From: Rhodobiaceae bacterium
Lineage (GTDB): Bacteria; Pseudomonadota; Alphaproteobacteria; Parvibaculales; Parvibaculaceae
Direction: 5' to 3'
Assembly (NCBI GenBank): GCA_003330885.1
Contig: CP030277.1
Coordinates: 1,240,001-1,304,000, forward strand
Length of the DNA stretch: 64,000 nt
The notes beneath the pieces are model-generated. The model worked only from the letters and a program-made list of their open reading frames with translations. It did no database searches and had not been told where the DNA came from. Both the position numbers and the translations under genes were made by a program. This document shows, piece by piece, positions 42,556 through 58,551 of the stretch (position 1 is the stretch's first letter; each line of letters begins with the position of its first letter).

Positions 42556-43407
42556 CTACACATCCAGTCGGTAGGCATCACCGTCACTCTTGATATGACC
42601 AGCTGTCGGCGTCGCAAAATGCGTTCCAATAACCAACATGGGTGTATCTGCATAACGCGCAAAAACCTCACGCCGCGTCGCCTCGCTTTGAGTGGGATCA
42701 TAATCAACAACAGCACACCAGTCAGGTCGCGCCAACTGACATGGATGATGAATGAAATCCCCGGTAATGATTGCGTCTTCGCCCTTGGAACTCAGCCGCA
42801 CGCTCACATGACCAGGCGTGTGCCCTACAGTGGGCTCCAACCATATGCCTTCACAGATTTCATGATTGAGTGGAATAAGGTCGACCAGGCCCGCATCGAA
42901 TACCGGCTTCACGGAGTCTGTAAACACAGCTTTCTGGCCAGCGTCACTTTCCTGAGATTGCCAATAGGTGAATTCCTTTTCCGCCATCAGGTAGCGGGCA
43001 TTTGGAAATGTCGGAACCCACTTGTCATCGACCAGCATCGTGTTCCATCCCACATGATCAACATGGAGATGGGTACACATTACCGTGTCGATTTCCTCAC
43101 GTGCATAGCCAGCTTTTTGAAGATCATCCAAAAACGGAAGGTCCAAATGGCTCCAGGTTGGGATCTCCCGCTCTTTATCATTGCCTATGCAGGTATCCAC
43201 CACAATCTTGCGCTCACCTGTATCTATGACCAGTGCATGAACGCTCATAATCAGGTGCCCATCCGGTGTCATGAAGTGTGGTGCCATCCACTTGAAGTCA
43301 CGGACAGCTTCCGGGGTCGCCTGCGGCAATAGAAATTTGGTGCCACCGGCAACCTCAATCTCGATCACCCGCGTAACGGTGAAATCTCCCACCTGCCATT
43401 TATTCAT
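42556..43407 (-). CDS. MBL-fold metallo-hydrolase (lactonase-like)
   Basis: 283 residues, no signal peptide. VMCTHLHVDHVGWNTML contains HxHxDH; VGHTPGHVSVRL and DFIHHPCQLARPDW provide the other ligands, and the ending is IGTHFATPTAGHI. This shape (about 280 residues, THLHxDHVG) covers quorum-quenching AHL lactonases, phosphotriesterase-like and methyl-parathion-hydrolase-like enzymes; the substrate cannot be told apart by eye. The ATG has a GGGGA site. Confidence 0.9.
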   Translation of the reverse strand: MNKWQVGDFTVTRVIEIEVAGGTKFLLPQATPEAVRDFKWMAPHFMTPDGHLIMSVHALVIDTGERKIVVDTCIGNDKEREIPTWSHLDLPFLDDLQKAGYAREEIDTVMCTHLHVDHVGWNTMLVDDKWVPTFPNARYLMAEKEFTYWQSQESDAGQKAVFTDSVKPVFDAGLVDLIPLNHEICEGIWLEPTVGHTPGHVSVRLSSKGEDAIITGDFIHHPCQLARPDWCAVVDYDPTQSEATRREVFARYADTPMLVIGTHFATPTAGHIKSDGDAYRLDV

Positions 43408-43577: not shown

Positions 43578-44906
43578 TTAGCGGCTGTCAGCCAAACGTT
43601 TTTGAGTGTCCGGTAGAGAGAACAACGTACTCAGCACCGAAAGCCCGGTCTTCTGCGAAACAGCCCGCGCCTGAAGTAGAGCACCGAGCGCCATTGAAAA
43701 TGAAAGAACTGCGGCCGCCCCTTCAAGACCGACCATCGGAACGAAAAGTGTATTGCCAGCAATCAAAACCAGAAGTGCAATGCCATAACTCATAAGGCTG
43801 CGCATTTGTGCGCCAACAACGGTTAGCACCTGCGTAACCGGGCCGATGAGTGACCGTAGAATCTGTCCGCCGATCAAAAACACAAGAGCATCAGCCCCCA
43901 CGGTAAACCTCTCCCCAAACAGCAGAAGTATCCCGTCGCCGAACACCGCCACGCCACAGAAAGCTGCTAGCGTGAACGCAAGTGTCGCGTGTTGCGCGCG
44001 CCGCAGGGCAGCACGCATCAGAAGGGTTTCGTTGCGGGCTTGCGCCTCTGCAAAATCGGGCATGCTCATCTGAAAAACTGTCTGGATGCCGAACTCAACC
44101 AACAACATGATCCTCAGGCAAACGCTGAAGATCCCCACCTGTTCTGCAGGAAGAAGTGTACTCAAGAACAAAATATCAATGTCAGCCAAAAGGGATGTGA
44201 GCAACGTGACAAATATCATCGGCGTTGCAGCCTGGCGCCAGGTTTTGCGTTCTAAAACAGGTTGAACCTCCCCCAAAACGAATTGACGGCGCGGCTGCAA
44301 AACGACCCAGAGCAAGCACGAAGCAGCCAATGCCACCACAAGATGAACCAGCAGCACATTGGTAGTGGTCATCGGAACAGCGAGGAAGTAGATGCCAAGA
44401 AGGCCACCAACCAGAAGAAGCGGTCTGAAGGTAACATCGGGAAGGTAGGTCAAATAGAACCGGCGCGCTGTGTTCGACAGAGCTCCGCCAAACCGCATGG
44501 CGGCGAGCACTGGGGCCAATACACAGGCAAGCATCAAAGGTATCTGATATTCACGGTCTACAAGACCGCTCGACAAAAGAACAAATACGACCAATCCGAA
44601 AATAAGCGCCGTCACTGCAATATGGCGCTTTGCATTCAGAATGAAGCCCGCGATCCGTGCCTTGTCCCCTGTCTCCTGATAGCCCGCGACAAATCGAGCC
44701 GTGACCGACGGCAGTCCAAAAGCGCAAAATATGGAAAGCACCGCAGCCAGCGACAGAGCAACGACATAGATACCGTAGTCCGTTGGGGGCATGAGCCGAA
44801 CCAACGCGAGCTGGATAAGAAACCCGAGCCCCGTGCCCCCAATGCGTGCCAACATCAAAAGGCTCGACGTCTTTAGAAAGCCCGAAACAGCTGGAATGCG
44901 CTTCAT
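43578..44906 (-). CDS. Lipopolysaccharide/polysaccharide flippase (Wzx-like)
   Basis: 442 residues with about 12-14 membrane helices. The start, FLKTSSLLMLARIGGTGLGFLIQLALVRLMPPTDYGIYV, is the hallmark of oligosaccharide flippases of the MATE/MOP superfamily. Its ATG overlaps the stop of the ATP-grasp gene by 4 bases. It would move a lipid-linked glycan or similar across the inner membrane. No glycosyltransferase or polymerase is adjacent, so its cargo may come from elsewhere on the chromosome. Confidence 0.9.
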   Translation of the reverse strand: MKRIPAVSGFLKTSSLLMLARIGGTGLGFLIQLALVRLMPPTDYGIYVVALSLAAVLSIFCAFGLPSVTARFVAGYQETGDKARIAGFILNAKRHIAVTALIFGLVVFVLLSSGLVDREYQIPLMLACVLAPVLAAMRFGGALSNTARRFYLTYLPDVTFRPLLLVGGLLGIYFLAVPMTTTNVLLVHLVVALAASCLLWVVLQPRRQFVLGEVQPVLERKTWRQAATPMIFVTLLTSLLADIDILFLSTLLPAEQVGIFSVCLRIMLLVEFGIQTVFQMSMPDFAEAQARNETLLMRAALRRAQHATLAFTLAAFCGVAVFGDGILLLFGERFTVGADALVFLIGGQILRSLIGPVTQVLTVVGAQMRSLMSYGIALLVLIAGNTLFVPMVGLEGAAAVLSFSMALGALLQARAVSQKTGLSVLSTLFSLPDTQKRLADSR

Positions 44907-46213
44907 ACGCCCCTCGCCGGAGGATCCTCACCCGCCATGTCTGGCACGTCCATCCCATGCGACTGCCTCTCCTTAACAGAGGTGCCTGAAAGCCGTTCTA
45001 GCGATGGGAACAGTTGCCGCGCAAACAACATTAAGGTTGGCGCAGGATCATGTAACGCCCATGTCATATGATGGTCGGCCCACAACGCGGTCCAAAAGGT
45101 CTTTAGGGCCCAACGTATGGCTCCGCCAAGGCCAATCTCTCCTCGCGCCAACGCAAACCTTAAACCCCTGATGTCCCCATAAACCCATGCATATCTGAAA
45201 CCAGACCGTATTCCCCGCACCTTTTTTGGAGGCTCGGGGTCAAGCCCAAGCGCAAGATCAACGGCGATACGGCACATCTCAAAACCCATTTGTTCTGTGA
45301 TTGCCTGACTGCCCGCGATACGGGGGTTAAGCTCCAAAAAGCATCTCTCGCCTGTTTTAGGATCAACGATAAATTGAGCGAGGCCTATGCCGGTATAGTC
45401 GAGCGCCTTCGCCAGCTTCTCGCAATCCTCAAGAAGCGGCGCAGATGTCGCGACGGTCACCCCATCTACAGCGTAGCCGGTCCCATCCAATGAGTCGGTT
45501 CGGCGTATATATGTTTGAAGATTGTTGATCAGCTCACCCTCACGGGCCGTAAAGAACACGTTGACCCTTGGGCCAACGGCTTGGCGCTGGATCAGAATTG
45601 GAAAGTCAGGTTTACACCAGTCGGAAATGAACTGTTGATAGTCCGACCAGCTGTCAATTATGACGGCCTTCTTCTCATTGAACTTGGCGCCCGGCGTCAG
45701 AGGTCGGGCAACTAGGGGCAGCCCCACCTCTCGGCCAAGCGCGGCATTGTCGCTGTTCGCCACAAGAACGGCGCAAGGCAATACGGGCACGTCTTCCTCA
45801 ACAGCGGTGTAGAGCATCGTGACCTTGTCCGCGCAGGTCTTCACAAGGTCTGCTCTTGGTGTGACAAGTGTCGCACCGCCTGGCAATGTCTGCATGCGCT
45901 CAGCAAAGAACATCACAAAGGGTTCGCTAATCGGAAGCACGAATTGTATGTCCTCCCGCTCGGACAGGAACTTCGTGAGAGCTACCTCCAATCCAACCAC
46001 ATCCGTCTCGACCGGTGGGTGATCCCATGCTTCATCAACAAAGCGGGAATATTCGCTAAAACCCTCTCCACCGCGCTTACCCATCACAATGCGGTATCCA
46101 GCGTCCCGGAGAGAGCGCGCCGCCGCCAGCGCAGGCCGATAATTCCCAAGCAAAAGGATAGATGGCCGGCTGTCTTTAACGTCTGAAAAAAGTTTGGTCG
46201 CGACTGATATCAT
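44903..46213 (-). CDS. ATP-grasp domain ligase
   Basis: About 436 residues. ATG 46213 is preferred because it overlaps the upstream stop by the common ATGA; a start at 46225 is possible. SILLLGNYRPALAAARSLRDAGYRIVMGKRG is a pre-ATP-grasp Rossmann-like domain of the carbamoyl-phosphate-synthase or PylC type. The ATP-grasp core includes LPLVARPLTPGAKFNEKKAV, IGLAQFIVDPKTGERCFLELNPRIAGSQ with the metal-binding E.N motif. The last ~90 residues are hydrophobic/aromatic. Such enzymes join a carboxylate to an amine; the substrates are unknown. Confidence 0.87.
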   Translation of the reverse strand: MISVATKLFSDVKDSRPSILLLGNYRPALAAARSLRDAGYRIVMGKRGGEGFSEYSRFVDEAWDHPPVETDVVGLEVALTKFLSEREDIQFVLPISEPFVMFFAERMQTLPGGATLVTPRADLVKTCADKVTMLYTAVEEDVPVLPCAVLVANSDNAALGREVGLPLVARPLTPGAKFNEKKAVIIDSWSDYQQFISDWCKPDFPILIQRQAVGPRVNVFFTAREGELINNLQTYIRRTDSLDGTGYAVDGVTVATSAPLLEDCEKLAKALDYTGIGLAQFIVDPKTGERCFLELNPRIAGSQAITEQMGFEMCRIAVDLALGLDPEPPKKVRGIRSGFRYAWVYGDIRGLRFALARGEIGLGGAIRWALKTFWTALWADHHMTWALHDPAPTLMLFARQLFPSLERLSGTSVKERQSHGMDVPDMAGEDPPARGV

Positions 46214-46983
46214 GTGGATTGACACCGATCTCCTGGCGTAGGGCCCACATCACCTAACCGCTGTATGGTGCACGCTGCCGTTTCCGCATGAAAACTAAGC
46301 CAGGCTGCAATGCCAATCAGTTTCGCGCCGTCTTCGATGAGGAGACGAAAGTCATTATCGTAGTTCATGAAGACATCGATCTTCACGCTGAGTGCGAGAC
46401 AGCCCACACTGAGCAGAAACATCAGCCAGCGCGCGCCAAGAATTTCGGCCCGCGCATACCAAACATAGAGGGCTGCAAAAGACGCGTAGACCACATAGGC
46501 AAGCGTTTCGGAATAACCGAGCTTCGGCAGAACAATGTCGTGCACGAGGAAGAAATCATCGATGCACAAAAGCATCGTGAGAAAACCTCCAAGACCAAAC
46601 TGAACAACGTAATGACTGTGTTCCTGCCCGCCTATCAGAGCGACAACGAGTGCAGCAAAAAACAGGATTGCCGTCCCCGCAGCCCACAGCAACACACCAA
46701 TGTTTGAGATGGCGCCATAATAGATATGGCAGCAATCCTGTGATACTTCCGCTACCAGCAAACTGTCCCGCAACAACTCGCCAATCGGCACAAAGGGCTG
46801 ATACCAGGCAGCAGCCAACAAGATGAGCGCAGGCACCAAAGTCACCGAATAGACAACAAGCGCCCACGCTGGACCAGGCAAACGGGCGCGCTCACCCGGC
46901 ACAACCAAACGGTGCACCAGCGCCTCTAACCTTCCCTGTCCCACAGCCAATGGAGCGTCCATTGCCGCCTGCCTTCCATGCAT
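46210..46983 (-). CDS. Multi-pass membrane protein of unknown function
   Basis: 257 residues with about six or seven membrane helices, starting at WALVVYSVTLVPALILLAAAW. Polar or charged residues sit near helices: CCHIYYGAISNIGVLLWA, CIDDFFLVHDIVLPKLGYSE, FMNYDNDFRLLIEDGAKLIGIAAW. The DDFFLVHD and DNDFRLLIEDGAK motifs suggest a conserved polar site. First gene of the trio with the ATP-grasp ligase and flippase, overlapping the former by 4 bases. I do not recognise the family. Confidence 0.72.
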   Translation of the reverse strand: MHGRQAAMDAPLAVGQGRLEALVHRLVVPGERARLPGPAWALVVYSVTLVPALILLAAAWYQPFVPIGELLRDSLLVAEVSQDCCHIYYGAISNIGVLLWAAGTAILFFAALVVALIGGQEHSHYVVQFGLGGFLTMLLCIDDFFLVHDIVLPKLGYSETLAYVVYASFAALYVWYARAEILGARWLMFLLSVGCLALSVKIDVFMNYDNDFRLLIEDGAKLIGIAAWLSFHAETAACTIQRLGDVGPTPGDRCQST

Positions 46984-47068: not shown

Positions 47069-47662
47069 TTAGCCGTCTGAATATGGCTCCATTTTGGTCA
47101 GGTTGAGCGTATATGCCGCACTGCCAAGCTGGTTCATGTGGGTCTTGGTCTCCAGCACACCCTCAAGCCACACCGGTTCCCAACCAAATGGGACTGCGTC
47201 TTCGGCCGTCACATAGACAATCTGATTGGGCGGCGGCGGAGGCACATGAATACAGGCGCCAAAATAGGGAACCAACAAGAATTCGGTTACTTCATTCATC
47301 TGGTTGATGTCGAACGGCACCATAAACCCTGGGATACGGATGGTTTTTCCATTGAGCTCTTCCACCACGTCAAAGGTCCCAAATTGAGTCGCCGGTGGTT
47401 TGCTACCTGTCGGATCATCCGGGTCAGCACCTGGAATTATGTCACCATCTTCCGGCAAATCAGAGATATCAGACTGCGCCTGATCTACTTCGCTAAGCGG
47501 CTCGGCTGCTCCGGCTGCAGCCGCATAGGCCTCCTCCAGCGCCTTTAGACCTTCCGGAGGCATAAGATCCTCCCAGTAAATCACCTCAGGCTCCGCAGCC
47601 GATACAAAAGCCCCGACCGAGCTAAAGCCAAGAGCCACAAAAACAGCCAATAGCAACTTCAT
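47069..47662 (-). CDS. DUF3299 domain-containing exported protein (Zrg-like operon)
   Basis: About 197 residues from ATG 47662, starting with signal peptide MKLLLAVFVALGFSSVGAFVSA. IYWEDLMPPEGLKALEEAY is the DUF3299 start; after an acidic insert, GKTIRIPGFMVPFDINQMNEVTEFLLVPYFGACIHVPPPPPNQIVYV is the family core. DUF3299 genes regularly neighbour a DUF2796 protein and an FtsX-type ABC pair, as here. In Vibrio cholerae, the zinc-regulated zrg operon has this kind of composition. A role in zinc acquisition is inferred. Confidence 0.87.
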   Translation of the reverse strand: MKLLLAVFVALGFSSVGAFVSAAEPEVIYWEDLMPPEGLKALEEAYAAAAGAAEPLSEVDQAQSDISDLPEDGDIIPGADPDDPTGSKPPATQFGTFDVVEELNGKTIRIPGFMVPFDINQMNEVTEFLLVPYFGACIHVPPPPPNQIVYVTAEDAVPFGWEPVWLEGVLETKTHMNQLGSAAYTLNLTKMEPYSDG

Positions 47663-47673
47663 AACATCGCTCC

Positions 47674-48945
47674 TTAGACGCGGATGGTCAGCCCATCCGA
47701 CAGCGACTGACGGTAGGCCCGCCAAGCTGGAAACGCGGCAAGAACGGCCGCAAAGGTGATAACAGCGCCAACAGTTATCAGATCAAATGAGGTGACACTG
47801 AGGCCACCGACAAAGACACCGGTTGCCTCGACAATAATCGGTCCTGCTGCCGCGAGCAGGATCTGCACCAGACAAAGCCCCAATAGGGCGCCCGCGCTGG
47901 CGAGAAAGGCGGATTCGCTTACGAGTAAGAGAGCAACATGGCTCGCCCCTGCCCCAACCGATCGTAGAATTGCCATCTCCCGTCGACGTTCGTTGAGACT
48001 GGTAAGGACATTCGTCATAAGCCCGAGGAGACCTGTCAAAATCACGAAAGTCGCAATCGCTCTCAAAGCCAGTTCAGCCACACCCACCACATCCCAAAGC
48101 TGGGTCAAGGCAACACCGGGTATGATCGCCATCAAAGCTTCTTCATCGTACGTGTTGATGTCTCGTTGAAGCGTGAGGATCGCAATACGGCTGTTCAGAC
48201 CCAAAAACACGGCCGTAACCGAAACTGGCTCGAGATCCGCGGCACGTACATCAGTGGCACTGGGTGCGCGGCTGCCGATAGGTGCCGCCCCGCCTGACCA
48301 GCCCAGATGGATGGCCTCAATCCCTTCGAGTTTGACATGAACGGTTCGATCAAGAGGCGTACCGGTCCTCTCCAGAATACCCACAACCCGAAATGGAAGA
48401 TTGTCATGTTTGGCAAAACTTACAGACCCAATACCGTGGGCGATCACTATCTCCTCACCCAGACCATAGGCGAGTTCAGACGCGACATCCGACCCTAAAA
48501 CCACATCAAATATGTCTTCGAACCGTTTTCCCGCTGAAAATTGCAGGTTCTGTTTGTCGCCGGTTCGGTAGTGATCAAAATAGGCTGGCGTTGTGCCCAT
48601 CACCCGAAATCCACGGTGACTATCGCCAAGAGAAATAGGCACCGCCCAGGCGACTTCGGGTCGGGAAGCGATATCTTCATAGCTCTCCCAGGTCACATTA
48701 TTGGTGGCATCGCCAATTCGGAAAACAGAGTAAAGCAAGAGGTTGAGCGCACCGCTACGGGCACCCACGATCAGGTCGGTCCCCGAAACCGTATTCGAAA
48801 ACCCCGTTTGGGCGCCGGATCGGATCTTCTCAACACCCAGAAACAACGTGACACTAAGGGCGATCGAAAACACCGTCAGCAACGCTGTGACACGTCGGTT
48901 CACAACGCTGCGATAGGCGATGAGTAAAAGAGCGGACATCGGCAT
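47674..48945 (-). CDS. ABC transporter permease, FtsX/MacB type
   Basis: 423 residues. One N-terminal helix (RVTALLTVFSIALSVTLFLGVEK), a periplasmic domain of about 220 residues and three C-terminal helices give the type VII ABC (MacB/LolC) layout. SLNERRREMAILRSVGAGASHVALLLVSES is the coupling motif. Its ATG shares one base with the ATPase stop. Such transporters usually do mechanical work on periplasmic partners rather than import ions through a pore, which is worth remembering for a supposed zinc system. Confidence 0.9.
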   Translation of the reverse strand: MPMSALLLIAYRSVVNRRVTALLTVFSIALSVTLFLGVEKIRSGAQTGFSNTVSGTDLIVGARSGALNLLLYSVFRIGDATNNVTWESYEDIASRPEVAWAVPISLGDSHRGFRVMGTTPAYFDHYRTGDKQNLQFSAGKRFEDIFDVVLGSDVASELAYGLGEEIVIAHGIGSVSFAKHDNLPFRVVGILERTGTPLDRTVHVKLEGIEAIHLGWSGGAAPIGSRAPSATDVRAADLEPVSVTAVFLGLNSRIAILTLQRDINTYDEEALMAIIPGVALTQLWDVVGVAELALRAIATFVILTGLLGLMTNVLTSLNERRREMAILRSVGAGASHVALLLVSESAFLASAGALLGLCLVQILLAAAGPIIVEATGVFVGGLSVTSFDLITVGAVITFAAVLAAFPAWRAYRQSLSDGLTIRV

Positions 48946-49682
48946 CAGACGGCTTCTTTCATGTCGGCCCGGTTAATCTCGGTGAGCGCCACGGTCCGAT
49001 CAAAGCTATTCGCCAGAGATAGGTCGTGGCTGACAAAAACCAACGTGGCACCACTAGCAGCACACTCCGCAGACAGCAGATCGATGAAGATATTTCGATG
49101 GTCTGCGTCGAGCGCAGATGTCGGTTCGTCTGCGATAATCAGCTCTGGCTGGCCAATCAGGGCACGCGCAGCAGCAACCCGTTGCTGCTGTCCGACGCTT
49201 AGGTCCGTCACAGGGCGTTCCATTGCCGCACCTGGCAGTCCAAGGTTCTTAAGAAGCCGGTTGGTTTCAGGTCCAACGCCGCCTGCCTCTGCAGCCAGCG
49301 CGGCTCGTACGCTTGAAAAGCGACAGGACAACGCGACATTGTCTCTAACTGAAAGATAAGGAAGGAGGTTAAACATCTGAAAAATAATGCCGAGATGATC
49401 TGCCCGGAAGCGGTCGCGTGCCCGACCGCTTAGGCTTGCAAGATCCTGCCCCAAAACACTCAGCCCGCCTGCCCCAGGTAACAGAACACCGCCAAGCAGA
49501 CCAAGCAAAGTGCTCTTGCCGCTGCCGCTGGGACCGTGGAGAAAAACTCGTTCCCCACGGTCAATGCGCAAGTCCGCAATGTCGAGCAATGGCGTACCGC
49601 CATCCCAAGAAAACACGAGATCTTTGATGACCACCGCGCTTTCCGCCGTCTTTTGACGTGCTTCTGCTCGACTTGCGTCCAT
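48945..49682 (-). CDS. ABC transporter ATP-binding protein (LolD/MacB type)
   Basis: 245 residues. Walker A GPSGSGKSTLLGLLGG, Q-loop FQMFNLLPYLSV, signature LSVGQQQRVAAARAL, Walker B LIIADEPTSALD and the switch His in VFVSHDLSLA are all intact. NLLPYLSVRDNVALSCRFS matches the LolD-type subfamily that pairs with FtsX permeases. The ATG shares a base with the stop of the DUF2796 gene and the stop overlaps the permease ATG. Confidence 0.94.
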   Translation of the reverse strand: MDASRAEARQKTAESAVVIKDLVFSWDGGTPLLDIADLRIDRGERVFLHGPSGSGKSTLLGLLGGVLLPGAGGLSVLGQDLASLSGRARDRFRADHLGIIFQMFNLLPYLSVRDNVALSCRFSSVRAALAAEAGGVGPETNRLLKNLGLPGAAMERPVTDLSVGQQQRVAAARALIGQPELIIADEPTSALDADHRNIFIDLLSAECAASGATLVFVSHDLSLANSFDRTVALTEINRADMKEAV

Positions 49683-50350
49683 TATTTAACCTCAAACTCC
49701 GACGCAGCGCCGGTGAGCTCAGCGGAGATTTGATGGTCATCACTCAAGAAAACAGCTTCGATTTCCTCGATCCCGGACCAATGCTCAAAAAAGGAAACGG
49801 AGACTCCAGAGAGTTGGTCAGGCGTTACACAATTGAACGTGTACGTCGCCTCAAACTCGGCATGTGCATCCTCACCTTTGTGTTCATCGCCCTCATGATG
49901 GTCGTCCTCATGATGGTCGTCCTCGTGGTGGCCGGTCTCGTGAGCCTCTGCAAGGAGTCCCTCTGCTTCAACATCGGCGTCTGAGAGAGAGCACCCTGCT
50001 CCTTTGAGCTCAATCAGCTCTGCGCCCATACCAAGCTTTTCAACCGCCGCTTTCACCGCTGCAATTTCATCGGCATCTTTAGCTTCATGCTCAAAGCCGA
50101 CAATATTCATGCCCGGCGACGTGAACTCAGCAATGAGCTGGTTGCCATCAACGGCCATGGCGAGTTTTGCGGCACCATGCTCATGAGATTCCGCGTGACG
50201 TTTCTCTGCATCATGGTCGTGATCGTGGTCACCATGGGAAGCTGCAAAACCAGATGTCGCGATAAGGCAAGTTCCCAGAGCTGCAACAACCGCGCCTGAA
50301 TGGTGTTTTGGACGCCTATTAGTGCGTCCCTTCTTCAAAAGGATAGACAT
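49682..50350 (-). CDS. His-rich DUF2796 (ZrgA-like) zinc-binding protein
   Basis: 222 residues from ATG 50350 with a GGAG site; ATG 50362 is also possible. The N-terminus has a signal peptide (VVAALGTCLIATSGFAA). Immediately after it is ASHGDHDHDHDAEKRHAESH, and near residues 140-165 is a second His/Asp/Glu block with repeated HHEDD units. Between them lies GAAKLAMAVDGNQLIAEFTSPGMNIVGFEHEA, the DUF2796 core. Family members bind zinc in the periplasm. First of four coupled genes of the putative uptake operon. Confidence 0.9.
   Translation of the reverse strand: MSILLKKGRTNRRPKHHSGAVVAALGTCLIATSGFAASHGDHDHDHDAEKRHAESHEHGAAKLAMAVDGNQLIAEFTSPGMNIVGFEHEAKDADEIAAVKAAVEKLGMGAELIELKGAGCSLSDADVEAEGLLAEAHETGHHEDDHHEDDHHEGDEHKGEDAHAEFEATYTFNCVTPDQLSGVSVSFFEHWSGIEEIEAVFLSDDHQISAELTGAASEFEVK
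49891..49935. repeat. 15-base tandem repeat coding a His/Asp/Glu block
   Basis: Two identical units CCTCATGATGGTCGT at 49891-49905 and 49906-49920, and a degenerate third to 49935. On the minus strand each unit codes for five residues of the HHEDD type inside the DUF2796 protein. Copy-number change would alter the number of metal-binding residues without shifting the frame. Confidence 0.8.
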
Positions 50351-50391
50351 ACTTTTCTCCATTTCGCCCGATTTAGGCGCTGATCAAAAAT

Positions 50392-55783: not shown

Positions 55784-56446
55784 ATGACCCAATGCCTAAC
55801 ACTGGCAGGATGCCTATCGATCCTTCTTGCAGGTCCTGTACTCGCTGAAAATCTGAACTTCGACGATGGTAGCTGGAAAACCATTGGGGTTCCGGGCGAG
55901 GACGAAACCGAGTTTGAAGTCAAACCGGACGGCTCGCTCCGTGTCATTTCGGAAACCTCCGTCGCCTTCAGGTACAAAGAGATCGAGAGTGCGGGAGAAA
56001 CACTTTCCTGGCGCTGGCGGGTCGACGCTATGGGTCCACCGAGCGACCCGATGCAGATCGGCGCCGATGACCGCCCCATCGCCGTACATCTCTGGTTCCC
56101 AGAACAGGAAGACCAACGCTCGCTCTTTGGTGGGCTTGCAGAACTGTTTGGCTATCCAGAGGTTGGAAACGCACTGACCTACACTTGGGGCGGTTCTGCA
56201 GAACAACCGAGGACGATGCCCAACCCTCACCTGACTGCGGGGCAAGGTGCCCTCATTACCCTGCAAACGGCGACCAGCCCGATCAAACAATGGACACAGG
56301 AAACCATCGATTTCCGAAAAGATTTTCGCGACGCGTTTGGCAAAGAAGCGCCACAACCCAGTCATATAGCCATTTCCGGCGATAGCGATGATCTTGGTGG
56401 CTATCGAGAAGGCCGCATCGCGGATCTGAGGTTCGCCAATGACTGA
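55784..56446 (+). CDS. DUF3047 domain-containing exported protein
   Basis: 220 residues with signal peptide MTQCLTLAGCLSILLAGPVLA. The mature part has LNFDDGSWKTIGVPGEDETEF, VAFRYKEIESAGETLSWRWRVD, AVHLWFPEQED, ALTYTWGGSAEQPRTM and AISGDSDDLGG, the order of DUF3047, a beta-sandwich periplasmic domain. Function unknown. It overlaps the glycosyltransferase gene by 8 bases, so the two are translated together. Confidence 0.87.
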   Translation: MTQCLTLAGCLSILLAGPVLAENLNFDDGSWKTIGVPGEDETEFEVKPDGSLRVISETSVAFRYKEIESAGETLSWRWRVDAMGPPSDPMQIGADDRPIAVHLWFPEQEDQRSLFGGLAELFGYPEVGNALTYTWGGSAEQPRTMPNPHLTAGQGALITLQTATSPIKQWTQETIDFRKDFRDAFGKEAPQPSHIAISGDSDDLGGYREGRIADLRFAND

Positions 56447-57158
56447 CGCTTTTGTCCATTCTTTCTCCGTAATCATTCCGACACTGAATGAAGCCCATCA
56501 GATCGGCGACAGGATTTCCCATGTCCGCCGCCTCAACAAAAACGCAGAGATCATCGTGGTCGATTGCGCGAGCACAGATGGCACGCCCGATATAGCAAGA
56601 GCCGCCGGTGCCAACGTTCACATGTCAGTGGAACCAGGCAGGGGTCAGCAGCTAAAGGTCGGAGGCGAGGTCGCTGGCGGTGACGTCATCATCTTCCTGC
56701 ACGCTGACACCCAACTGCCCGAGACAGCATTCGCCGCCATCGACAAAGAGCTTTCAGATGGCTCAAAAATTGGCGGTAACTTCAGGATCCTGTTTGATGG
56801 CGACAGCGATTTTGCGACCTGGTTGAACGACTTCTACGCCTGGTTCCGAAGCAAAGGCCTCTACTACGGAGACTCTGTCATCTTTCTAAGGCGCTCGGTA
56901 TATCAGGACCTCGGCGGCATCATGCCCTACACCGTCATGGAAGACTTTGACCTGAGCCGGAAAATGGAACGTCTCGGCGGCACAGTTTGCATAGAAGACG
57001 ACCCCGTCGTCACATCGTCCCGGCGGTTCAAAAACCGACATCCCGCATCAATCTTTGCTGGCTGGTGCGTCCTACATGGCCTCTACTATATCGGCCTCTC
57101 AACTCGGGCACTCGGTTGGGTCTACGACAACAAACGGCGACGCACCTCCGCCCGCTAA
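56439..57158 (+). CDS. Family 2 glycosyltransferase, TIGR04283-like
   Basis: 239 residues. SVIIPTLNEAHQIGDRI and EIIVVDCASTDGTPDIARAAGA form the nucleotide-sugar fold; the family trait GRGQQLKVGGEVAGGDVIIFLHADT replaces the usual DxD with HAD. GGNFRILFDGDSDFATWLNDFYAWFRSKGLYYGDSVIFLRRSVY and MEDFDLSRKMERLG match TIGR04283, a group named for its link with arsenosugar genes. No arsenic genes are in the window, so that role is not supported here. Downstream partner of DUF3047. Confidence 0.88.
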   Translation: MTDAFVHSFSVIIPTLNEAHQIGDRISHVRRLNKNAEIIVVDCASTDGTPDIARAAGANVHMSVEPGRGQQLKVGGEVAGGDVIIFLHADTQLPETAFAAIDKELSDGSKIGGNFRILFDGDSDFATWLNDFYAWFRSKGLYYGDSVIFLRRSVYQDLGGIMPYTVMEDFDLSRKMERLGGTVCIEDDPVVTSSRRFKNRHPASIFAGWCVLHGLYYIGLSTRALGWVYDNKRRRTSAR

Positions 57159-57181
57159 AAACCTACCGCTAAAGACTGTGC

Positions 57182-58048
57182 CTACAGAACATCATTCAAG
57201 GACCAGTCATAGGCGGTGTCATGCAACTCCCCTATAGATCGGAGTTCGCCCGCAAGTTCTTCATCTGCATATTCGAGCAAATGCGCCAACACTTCTTCCT
57301 CTGACGTGCCGAAGTCCTCAAAAAACCAGTCATAAATGCTTGAGATCGTGACGCGACCTTGTGAGATCGAAACACCACGCGGACTGTTCACATATGCCCG
57401 CGCTCCTGCATCCAACAGGTCTTCTACGTTCGAGGCAGTGAAGCCTTCCGACTGCAAGTTGGGGCAACCAACAGAGGCACAATTCACCGCATAGTGGATA
57501 CGGGCATCTTTCCAGATGGGGCGAAGAATACGGTGTTCAATGTCATTGAGGGTCAGGTCTTCACCTTCAACAGTGACAAGGTCTTTGTCCCATGGACCGT
57601 CTGCAAACAGACCAGGCGAAATATCAATGTCCCGAATGCTCTCCACCGGGTATGCGTCCAGCACCACATCAACCGTCACAGCATTATAGAGGTTGATCCA
57701 GTAGGCCTTCTGCGCGATGCGCGAAAAATCGCTGATTGGCAGCGCCGTTTGTTCACTTATGAACTTCTTGAGCGTCTGTCGGTCCGCGTCAGAGACAGAA
57801 CCGTAGGCAAATCGATTAAGCCCGTTGCTATCTGGTTTCACATAGGTAGCAAGAATCTCATTCCAGGCTGAAACATCAATCACTTCTGTGCTTTGAGGGT
57901 TATGCGCTTCCCATCGTGACCACAGGTCAGCATCTGGTGCGAAGTTGGCTTCAAAGCTTCGAAAGCCGCTGAGGCTGAACAAGGCAAGTCCCGCCGCTGC
58001 GAGACGTACAAAATCAGAAGACCGAAACCGGACAGAGAACAGGGACAT
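57182..58048 (-). CDS. DUF547 domain-containing exported protein
   Basis: 288 residues from ATG 58048; upstream codons in frame lack a ribosome site. Signal peptide VRLAAAGLALFSLSGFRSFEA. FAYGSVSDADRQTLKKFISEQ, QKAYWINLYNAVTVDVVLDAYPVESIRDI and DARIHYAVNCASVGCPNLQSEGF are DUF547 landmarks; the N-x-A-S-x-G-C-P segment with Cys and the upstream NLYNAVT resemble a papain-like arrangement, but catalysis is unproven. Convergent with the glycosyltransferase gene. Confidence 0.87.
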   Translation of the reverse strand: MSLFSVRFRSSDFVRLAAAGLALFSLSGFRSFEANFAPDADLWSRWEAHNPQSTEVIDVSAWNEILATYVKPDSNGLNRFAYGSVSDADRQTLKKFISEQTALPISDFSRIAQKAYWINLYNAVTVDVVLDAYPVESIRDIDISPGLFADGPWDKDLVTVEGEDLTLNDIEHRILRPIWKDARIHYAVNCASVGCPNLQSEGFTASNVEDLLDAGARAYVNSPRGVSISQGRVTISSIYDWFFEDFGTSEEEVLAHLLEYADEELAGELRSIGELHDTAYDWSLNDVL

Positions 58049-58158
58049 GGGAACCTCCACTATAGGTAGAGGGAGCTTGCCCACTCTGATGATCAACTGG
58101 AAATCACATCCCGGCCAGACGGGCGTGATCGGGGGGTCGTCTGGCCGGGCGCTTCTTC

Positions 58159-58551
58159 CTAGGAGGCAAGGAAGAGACCAATGACCGCGGCAATGCATCC
58201 AACGCCATCGATCCAGTAGAGCGCTGAGATAATTGGCAGTAGCTTTTCGCCTTTATCACCAATGAGGAAGGCAGCACCCCTCCCTGCAATCAGGCCACCA
58301 AAGATAACCAGACCAACAAAAAGCGCCGCCGGTGCGGAAATCACACCACCGAAAACAGCAAACTGCGCAATCCCAGCTGCCGCAAAGAACCCGCCATATT
58401 GAGCACGGATTTCGATCGCTCCGGACCGTCCGTTAGGCTCAAGACCCAGCCCGCGCGCGAACGGGACAGGTGTCCGAAAACTTGCGACCGCGGTGTAAGC
58501 AAAGAACAATCCAAAAATGACAAGAATGCTATTGATGACAATCTGTGCCAT
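58159..58551 (-). CDS. DUF4345 family membrane protein
   Basis: 130 residues, four membrane helices. SILVIFGLFFAYTAVASFRTP, RAQYGGFFAAAGIAQF and the charged GRGAAFLIGDKGEKLLPIIS loop correspond to DUF4345. Function unknown. Three bases separate its ATG from the stop of the alpha/beta hydrolase gene upstream, so both belong to one unit controlled from the palindrome at 59464. Confidence 0.85.
   Translation of the reverse strand: MAQIVINSILVIFGLFFAYTAVASFRTPVPFARGLGLEPNGRSGAIEIRAQYGGFFAAAGIAQFAVFGGVISAPAALFVGLVIFGGLIAGRGAAFLIGDKGEKLLPIISALYWIDGVGCIAAVIGLFLAS

What the first reader, a model, noticed from the sequence alone, without database searches (positions are those of the whole stretch)
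43578..46983. Overlapping trio: membrane protein, ATP-grasp ligase, polysaccharide flippase
Seen: both junctions are 4-base ATGA overlaps, so the three proteins are made together, and the whole set stands without glycosyltransferases or polymerase. Known: ATP-grasp enzymes make amide-type bonds and flippases move lipid-linked products. Inference: the set could attach an amino acid or similar group to a membrane-bound carrier and flip it, a possible new surface modification route.
Basis: inference. Interest (0 to 1): 0.52.

Follow-up and report, generated by a model that had tools for sequence, protein, structure and literature searches.

The report
Ligase–flippase trio, likely glycan decoration
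Three overlapping genes, kept together in one genus of alphaproteobacteria, probably add a small group to a sugar building block made by enzymes encoded elsewhere in the genome and carry it across the inner membrane; this is most likely an unusual arrangement of a known kind of surface-sugar machinery.

Summary
In detail: on the minus strand a 257-aa membrane protein, a 436-aa ATP-grasp enzyme and a 442-aa Wzx-type flippase overlap by ATGA at both junctions. The trio lies at one syntenic site in 5 of 7 genus genomes, under purifying selection, and is absent from the other two. Outside the genus I did not find it together.

The ATP-grasp keeps its ATP-site residues. Three of seven more distant ATP-grasp loci opened also carry flippases, in glycan settings. 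The membrane family has no Pfam name; two of eight non-genus loci have glycan genes nearby. An exopolysaccharide core about 150 kb away has no PF01943 flippase.

Best reading: a detached decoration-and-flipping cassette. The ligase adds an amine or amino acid to a lipid-linked sugar unit made elsewhere, and the flippase exports it. Substrate and membrane-protein role are inferred. A route independent of glycosyltransferases is not excluded but has no positive support beyond the bare locus; a GT2 gene lies 9.5 kb away. Novelty: variant of a known kind.

The parts
46210..46983 (-). gene 1: 257-aa polytopic membrane protein with conserved D142, D143, H148 (own motif DDFFLVHD), E159, S199, D203, E217 and K221; no Pfam or NCBIfam family
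   Evidence: model pLDDT 66.9 with about six long helices
44903..46213 (-). gene 2: 436-aa ATP-grasp enzyme (CPSase_L_D2 type); K130, E294, N296, R298 kept
   Evidence: PF02786 37.4 bits against cut-off 19.8; alignment to CarB; 9-sequence alignment
43578..44906 (-). gene 3: 442-aa Wzx/PST-type flippase
   Evidence: PF01943 49.1 bits against 28.2; PF13440 27 against 23
46210..46213 (-). ATGA overlap, gene 1 stop / gene 2 start
   Evidence: also ATGA in 4 of 4 other trio genomes
44903..44906 (-). ATGA overlap, gene 2 stop / gene 3 start
   Evidence: ATGA in 3 of 4 other trio genomes, 1-base overlap in G004
47069..47725 (-). upstream flank: DUF3299 protein, 85 bases before gene 1; same strand
   Evidence: PF11736; syntenic in G001-G004
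42556..43407 (-). downstream flank: metallo-beta-lactamase-fold hydrolase, 170 bases after gene 3
   Evidence: PF00753; syntenic in G001-G004

Best explanation
The trio is a detached decoration-and-flipping cassette of a Wzx/Wzy-type surface polysaccharide pathway. The ATP-grasp enzyme activates a carboxylate as acyl phosphate and joins it to an amine (or hydroxyl), for example amidating a uronic acid or adding an amino acid on an undecaprenyl-linked sugar unit. The Wzx-type flippase carries the finished unit to the periplasmic face. The membrane protein assists in the membrane, either as a second modifying enzyme that uses its conserved acidic/His residues or as a partner of the flippase. The sugar unit is made by the EPS enzymes (WcaJ-type initiator, one GT4, Wzy, Wza, Wzc, GNATs) encoded about 150 kb away. 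SHOWN: the gene set, its overlaps, its conservation in the genus, the family assignments of genes 2 and 3, the conserved ATP-site residues, the EPS core without a PF01943 flippase. INFERRED: the substrate, the bond formed, the link to that EPS core, and everything about the membrane protein's role.
For: Trio order and overlaps kept in 5 of 7 genus genomes at one site, under purifying selection. Three of 7 more distant ATP-grasp loci opened carry flippases: Vibrio alfacsensis plasmid (GNAT, flippase, ATP-grasp, 335-aa gene, flippase, then GT2 and pyruvyl transferase genes, next to PrsT/PEP-CTERM genes), Haloprofundus plasmid (flippase, polysaccharide deacetylase, nucleotide-sugar dehydrogenase) and G040 (GT4 nearby). 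A membrane-protein relative sits in the Palleronia EPS cluster directly beside a divergent gene annotated as lipopolysaccharide biosynthesis protein that scores as a flippase (PF13440 241 bits); another sits next to a weak GT9 gene (L045). Three PF01943 matches exist in the genome. In the EPS core locus of 7 of 7 genus genomes no gene matches the genome's three flippases. The five trio genomes have two GNAT genes in the EPS core, the two trio-less genomes one. Precedent: a TupA-like ATP-grasp domain (Cj1438C) amidates glucuronic acid in the Campylobacter jejuni capsule (PMC11800379, passages read).
Against: No glycan gene is seen next to the trio in any of the 5 genomes as far as the stretches go (flanks are DUF3299, ABC transporter and MBL genes; the G004 contig ends just past DUF3299). 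The EPS core is also in the two trio-less genomes, so it does not need the trio; two other flippases could serve it. Six of 8 membrane-protein loci outside the genus show no glycan gene among the neighbours that I read or scanned. Four of 7 more distant ATP-grasp loci show no flippase match in the stretch. The GNAT difference is confounded with phylogeny: the trio-less genomes are also the most divergent. Relatives at 23-32 % identity need not share substrates.
Confidence: 0.45

Rival explanations
1. One reading: a self-contained system without glycosyltransferases that joins an amino acid or similar group to a membrane-bound carrier or membrane lipid and flips it.
For: Trio kept together with no glycan gene seen next to it in 5 of 5 trio genomes; the nearest PF00534 glycosyltransferase is about 155 kb away; membrane protein co-conserved with the ATP-grasp.
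Against: A GT2 gene lies 9.5 kb away; the more distant ATP-grasp loci that have flippases are in glycan settings; PF01943 proteins typically move lipid-linked sugars (established knowledge); the EPS core elsewhere can supply such sugars.
Confidence: 0.17
2. The ATP-grasp makes a soluble amide or peptide-like small molecule and the flippase-family protein exports it; no glycan is involved.
For: ATP-grasp families are broad (one search lists many weak matches); the closest non-genus relative (G117, 32 %) sits beside a gene that looks RidA-like by eye, with no flippase or membrane-protein match on its 9.5-kb contig, although the contig ends just downstream.
Against: Neighbours scanned beside the trio include no carrier protein or other small-molecule assembly gene (others read by eye); the flippase's best families are polysaccharide transporters.
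Confidence: 0.15
3. The three genes share transcription and translation but not a pathway; the flippase is one of several interchangeable Wzx proteins.
For: Three PF01943 flippases dispersed in the genome; a paper reports that deleting a Wzx-type flippase gene had no effect on EPS in a Sphingomonas isolate and cites apparent promiscuity of holdfast Wzx transporters (PMC11340318, one passage read).
Against: Gene order kept across 5 genomes although their membrane proteins differ by up to 35 %; both ATGA overlaps kept in 4 of 5.
Confidence: 0.13

Closest known systems
Cj1438 C-terminal amidoligase of the Campylobacter jejuni HS:2 capsule (TupA-like ATP-grasp; PMC11800379, passages read)
   Same: ATP-grasp enzyme making an amide on a sugar carboxylate of a surface polysaccharide; works-like comparison
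   Different: TupA-like family and fused to a GT2 domain inside a capsule cluster; the trio's enzyme is CPSase_L_D2-type, unfused and not beside glycosyltransferases; substrate untested
Vibrio alfacsensis plasmid pYa108 EPS set: GNAT, flippase, ATP-grasp, 335-aa gene, flippase (L037)
   Same: flippase and a 24 %-identical ATP-grasp side by side
   Different: ATP-grasp fused to an LMWPc phosphatase domain; no membrane-protein relative in the stretch; lies inside a glycan cluster
Wzx/PST flippases (PF01943, PF13440)
   Same: trio gene 3 passes both Pfam cut-offs
   Different: below the curated cut-offs of NCBIfam WZX_like, SpoVB and HfsF
CarB carbamoyl-phosphate synthase large chain
   Same: ATP-site motif aligns, E294-x-N296-x-R298 with the CarB E-x-N-x-R stretch
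   Different: single ATP-grasp unit; 18.1 and 16.3 bits against CarB cut-offs of 599 and 1027
Unnamed membrane family of L052:7452-8177 (motif LLSIDE..FHE)
   Same: collinear acidic/His motif; hhalign score 34.4 against a maximum of 19.7 in 60 block shuffles; own copy beside a flippase, 3 of 5 plasmid relatives beside glycosyltransferases
   Different: hhalign probability only 41-45 % (0.2 % with the single sequence); remote homology not proved

Membership tests
Wzx/PST polysaccharide flippase | passes Pfam PF01943 cut-off | tested here: met
   49.1 bits against 28.2
Wzx/PST polysaccharide flippase | encoded in, or functionally tied to, a glycan assembly locus | tested here: inconclusive
   no glycan neighbour seen at the trio; EPS core without PF01943 flippase elsewhere
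HfsF / WZX_like / SpoVB (NCBIfam) | passes curated cut-off | tested here: not met
   18.7 of 700, 29.2 of 300, 31.5 of 372.3 bits
ATP-grasp superfamily | significant match and catalytic residues | tested here: met
   PF02786 37.4 of 19.8 bits; K130, N296, R298 in 9 of 9 and E294 in 8 of 9 aligned sequences
ATP-grasp superfamily | predicted fold | tested here: inconclusive
   model from 4 sequences has mean pLDDT 37.9 and was not searched
CarB carbamoyl-phosphate synthase | duplicated ATP-grasp, passes CarB cut-offs | tested here: not met
   18.1 of 599 and 16.3 of 1027 bits; 436 aa, one matched stretch
TupA-like sugar amidoligase (Cj1438C type) | match to a TupA-type Pfam model | tested here: not met
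   Pfam scan at E up to 1 lists only PF02786 and PF15632 for this protein; that a TupA model is in Pfam is recalled
TupA-like sugar amidoligase (Cj1438C type) | amidates a sugar carboxylate in vitro | not testable with these tools
   needs purified enzyme
Membrane protein as a member of the L052-type family | significant profile-profile match with collinear motif | tested here: inconclusive
   probability 41-45 %, p 2-3e-4; reversed and shuffled controls lower; single-sequence comparison 0.2 %
Microbial rhodopsin fold (membrane protein) | clear structural match | tested here: inconclusive
   Foldseek best E 0.13; VIA-align best Z 9.7 among mixed helical bundles, from a pLDDT 66.9 model

The most novel reading that the evidence does not exclude
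A genus-specific, stand-alone envelope system in which a membrane enzyme of an undescribed family, with a DD-x4-H-[DE] and ED-x2-K site in its helices, works with an ATP-grasp ligase to load an amino acid or amine onto a lipid carrier (not a sugar chain), and a flippase shows it outside. The membrane protein and its L052-type cousins would then be a new superfamily of intramembrane enzymes of surface glycan and lipid modification.
Probability: 0.12. Interest if true: 0.65.

Novelty: new variant of a known kind. Interest (0 to 1): 0.36.

Why it matters
If the reading holds, the cassette shows that decoration and flipping of surface-glycan units can travel as a unit apart from the assembly genes, so glycan structures predicted from single clusters would miss it. 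The unnamed membrane family offers a handle: its conserved acidic/His residues and its occurrence near glycan genes in some genomes make it a candidate new membrane enzyme family.

Tried and rejected
Rejected: G158 as a membrane-protein relative (one search hit at 3.4e-4; the locus holds no such protein, the frame being an unrelated 385-aa protein). Rejected: calling the 335/338-aa partners of the LMWPc-fused ATP-grasps (Vibrio, G376) polysaccharide deacetylases; they match each other at 33 % but no Pfam family at E up to 0.01. Rejected: filing the EPS core as holdfast; the WcaJ-type protein passes the TIGR03023 cut-off, but the HfsE and HfsH cut-offs are not met.

Led nowhere: ATP-grasp structure prediction (pLDDT 37.9; not used for a fold search). 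The membrane-protein fold search gave only generic helical bundles; rhodopsin-like rows are not taken as kinship. Promoter and terminator scan: 1 promoter-like site (2.2 expected) and 11 terminator-like sites (5.7, sd 2.3, expected); none of the minus-strand sites lies in the gap before gene 1 or after gene 3. The 85-base upstream gap with its edges does not fold better than shuffles (z -0.77). Plasmid search with the membrane protein gave one hit, 43 % of the query covered. Literature: the listings show no title on an ATP-grasp, flippase and membrane protein trio; this covers only the held open-access library, those terms and the rows shown. Passages were read in PMC11800379, PMC2824669 (predicted ATP-grasp modification of animal cell-surface polymers), PMC11915815, PMC11340318 and PMC4110880 (read as a lead on the genus, not used). 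Other papers were seen as listings only.

Limits: genome searches used 12 of 12. I did not test which flippase the trio-less genomes use, nor flippase families other than PF01943 genome-wide, nor glycosyltransferase families other than PF00535, PF00534 and PF02397. Neighbours of most relatives were judged by reading the starts of translations, with only selected proteins scanned; the listing was cut. In one search flippases were sought with five probe proteins only, and stretches were 9.5-24 kb. Skermanella rosea (H24) and the class hits G236 and G302 were listed but not opened. Of the 74 plasmid records with ATP-grasp matches I opened 4.
Full report
CHECK OF THE OBSERVATION. The window is C1:1240001-1304000 of a single-contig 3.86-Mb genome. 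Three ORFs on the minus strand overlap: a 257-aa membrane protein (46983-46210), a 436-aa ATP-grasp (46213-44903) and a 442-aa flippase (44906-43578). Both junctions are ATGA. Pfam gives PF02786 for gene 2 (37.4 bits, cut-off 19.8), PF01943 and PF13440 for gene 3, and nothing reliable for gene 1. NCBIfam assigns none of the three above its cut-offs.

CONSERVATION. Searching 146 genomes with the membrane protein found it in 5, the window's own genome included. The ATP-grasp was found in the same 5 plus two distant matches. All 5 belong to one genus, of which 7 genomes were searched. In the four relatives the trio has the same order and the same flanks: DUF3299 on one side and metallo-beta-lactamase-fold genes on the other. 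Two more genus members, G005 and G006, lack it. In G006 the place between DUF3299 and a metallo-beta-lactamase gene holds an enoyl-CoA hydratase. In G005 the region beyond DUF3299 is different. Overlaps are ATGA/ATGA in 4 of 5 genomes; G004 has ATGA and a 1-base overlap. Across G000-G003, dN/dS shows purifying selection on all three genes: about as strong on the ATP-grasp (0.05-0.07) as on one control gene (MBL, 0.04-0.07), weaker than on the other (ABC permease, 0.03-0.04), and weaker than both controls on the membrane protein and the flippase. Named copies of three relatives are Alpha proteobacterium Mf 1.05b.01, Rhodobiaceae bacterium FE80 and Alphaproteobacteria bacterium OFTM199. I did not identify the window's own species.

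THE ATP-GRASP. An alignment of 9 sequences (own, one genus member and seven more distant) keeps K130, N296 and R298 in all and E294 in 8 of 9. The E-x-N-x-R stretch aligns with CarB, so the enzyme is probably active. That these residues bind ATP and metal is established knowledge of the superfamily, recalled. Relatives within the class are few: 8 of 385 genomes at E up to 1e-10, three of them this genus. Seven more distant ATP-grasp loci were opened: G117, G040, G376, Halocatena, Haloprofundus, Vibrio alfacsensis and Miltoncostaea; G236 and G302 were not. Three of the 7 have a flippase in the stretch (L027, L036, L037). Vibrio and Haloprofundus are annotated glycan clusters, and G040 has a GT4 gene nearby. 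Four of the 7 show no flippase match. In Vibrio, G376 and G040 the ATP-grasp is fused to an LMWPc phosphatase domain; the trio's enzyme is not. None of the 7 stretches has a match to the membrane protein.

THE MEMBRANE PROTEIN. Thirteen sequences, the trio's own included, share D142, D143, H148, E159, S199, D203, E217 and K221 (trio numbering). Outside the genus it is sporadic: 3 new genomes of 398 in a phylum search and 2 of 385 in a class search (a third hit there was spurious). Eight loci outside the genus were opened. None carries a match to the trio's ATP-grasp, and one, Palleronia sp. THAF1, carries a flippase, in an EPS cluster. A second, L045, has a GT9 gene next door (23.7 bits, cut-off 22). 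The other six show no glycan gene among the neighbours scanned or read. The predicted model is of middling confidence (pLDDT 66.9) and its matches are generic helical bundles.

A POSSIBLE WIDER FAMILY. Elsewhere in the own genome (C1 near 3.045 Mb) a second flippase overlaps a GNAT gene by ATGA, next to a cupin-like gene and a divergent membrane protein with the motif LLSIDETVGFHE. Five plasmid relatives of that protein were opened: three lie in glycan clusters (Paracoccus marcusii, Deinococcus ficus, D. taeanensis) and two do not (Rhodobacter CZR27, Sulfitobacter faviae). Comparing the trio family with the single protein gave nothing (probability 0.2 %). Profile against profile gives score 34.4-35.3, probability 41-45 % and p 2-3e-4, with the acidic/His motif in register. 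Reversed profiles score 16-18 and 60 block shuffles at most 19.7. This suggests remote kinship without proving it.

WHERE A SUBSTRATE COULD COME FROM. The genome has three PF01943 flippases and two PF02397 initiating sugar transferases. One initiator lies in an EPS core at about 1.125-1.136 Mb: Wzy_C protein, WcaJ-type transferase (TIGR03023, 461.2 of 410.75 bits), one GT4, Wza- and Wzc-like proteins, two GNATs and a deacetylase-like protein (Wza named from its sequence by eye, the deacetylase from weak matches). No PF01943 flippase of the own genome lies there. In 7 of 7 genus genomes the locus (20 kb each, 16.6 kb in G004) shows no match to the three own flippases nor to the Palleronia and Vibrio ones. 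The core is also present in the two trio-less genomes, which have one GNAT there instead of two. The nearest glycosyltransferase found is a GT2 at window 56439-57158, beside DUF3047 and DUF547 genes; it is missing from that stretch in G002.

MECHANISM. I think it most likely that the ligase adds a small amine or amino acid to a lipid-linked sugar unit, the flippase exports it, and the membrane protein acts on the same intermediate. The nearest tested precedent is the ATP-grasp domain of Cj1438, which amidates glucuronic acid in the C. jejuni capsule (PMC11800379, passages read). That enzyme belongs to a different ATP-grasp family, so the comparison is about function, not membership. Archaeal pseudomurein clusters also carry an ATP-grasp with an MraY-like protein (PMC11915815, passages read). 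Wzx redundancy proposed for a Sphingomonas EPS (PMC11340318, one passage) is the main reason for caution about tying the flippase to one glycan.

VERDICT. What is unusual is the detachment from the assembly genes and the unnamed membrane family.

Noticed in passing
L052:7452-8177 (G000 C1 near 3.043 Mb): Unnamed membrane family with LLSIDE..FHE and EE..E motif beside a flippase/GNAT pair; 3 of 5 plasmid relatives opened lie in glycan clusters (Paracoccus, two Deinococcus). Possible remote kin of trio gene 1.
   Followed up: partly
L037:7950-10738, L077:5951-8691, L027:9623-11602: ATP-grasp fused to an LMWPc phosphatase domain; in Vibrio alfacsensis and G376 it overlaps a related 335-338-aa gene of no Pfam family.
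   Followed up: partly
L054, L078-L083: EPS core with no match to known flippase probes in 7 of 7 genus genomes; two GNAT genes in the five trio genomes, one in the two trio-less ones.
   Followed up: partly
window 47069-50362: ZrgA, ABC ATPase, FtsX/MacB-type permease and DUF3299 in a tight row upstream of the trio, perhaps a metal-uptake operon that could be co-transcribed with it.
   Followed up: no
window 55784-58198: Short GT2 gene overlapping a DUF3047 gene, beside a DUF547 gene; not found in the matching stretch of G002 (L023).
   Followed up: partly
L045:8493-10483: Membrane-protein relative directly after a weak GT9 (heptosyltransferase-family) gene.
   Followed up: partly
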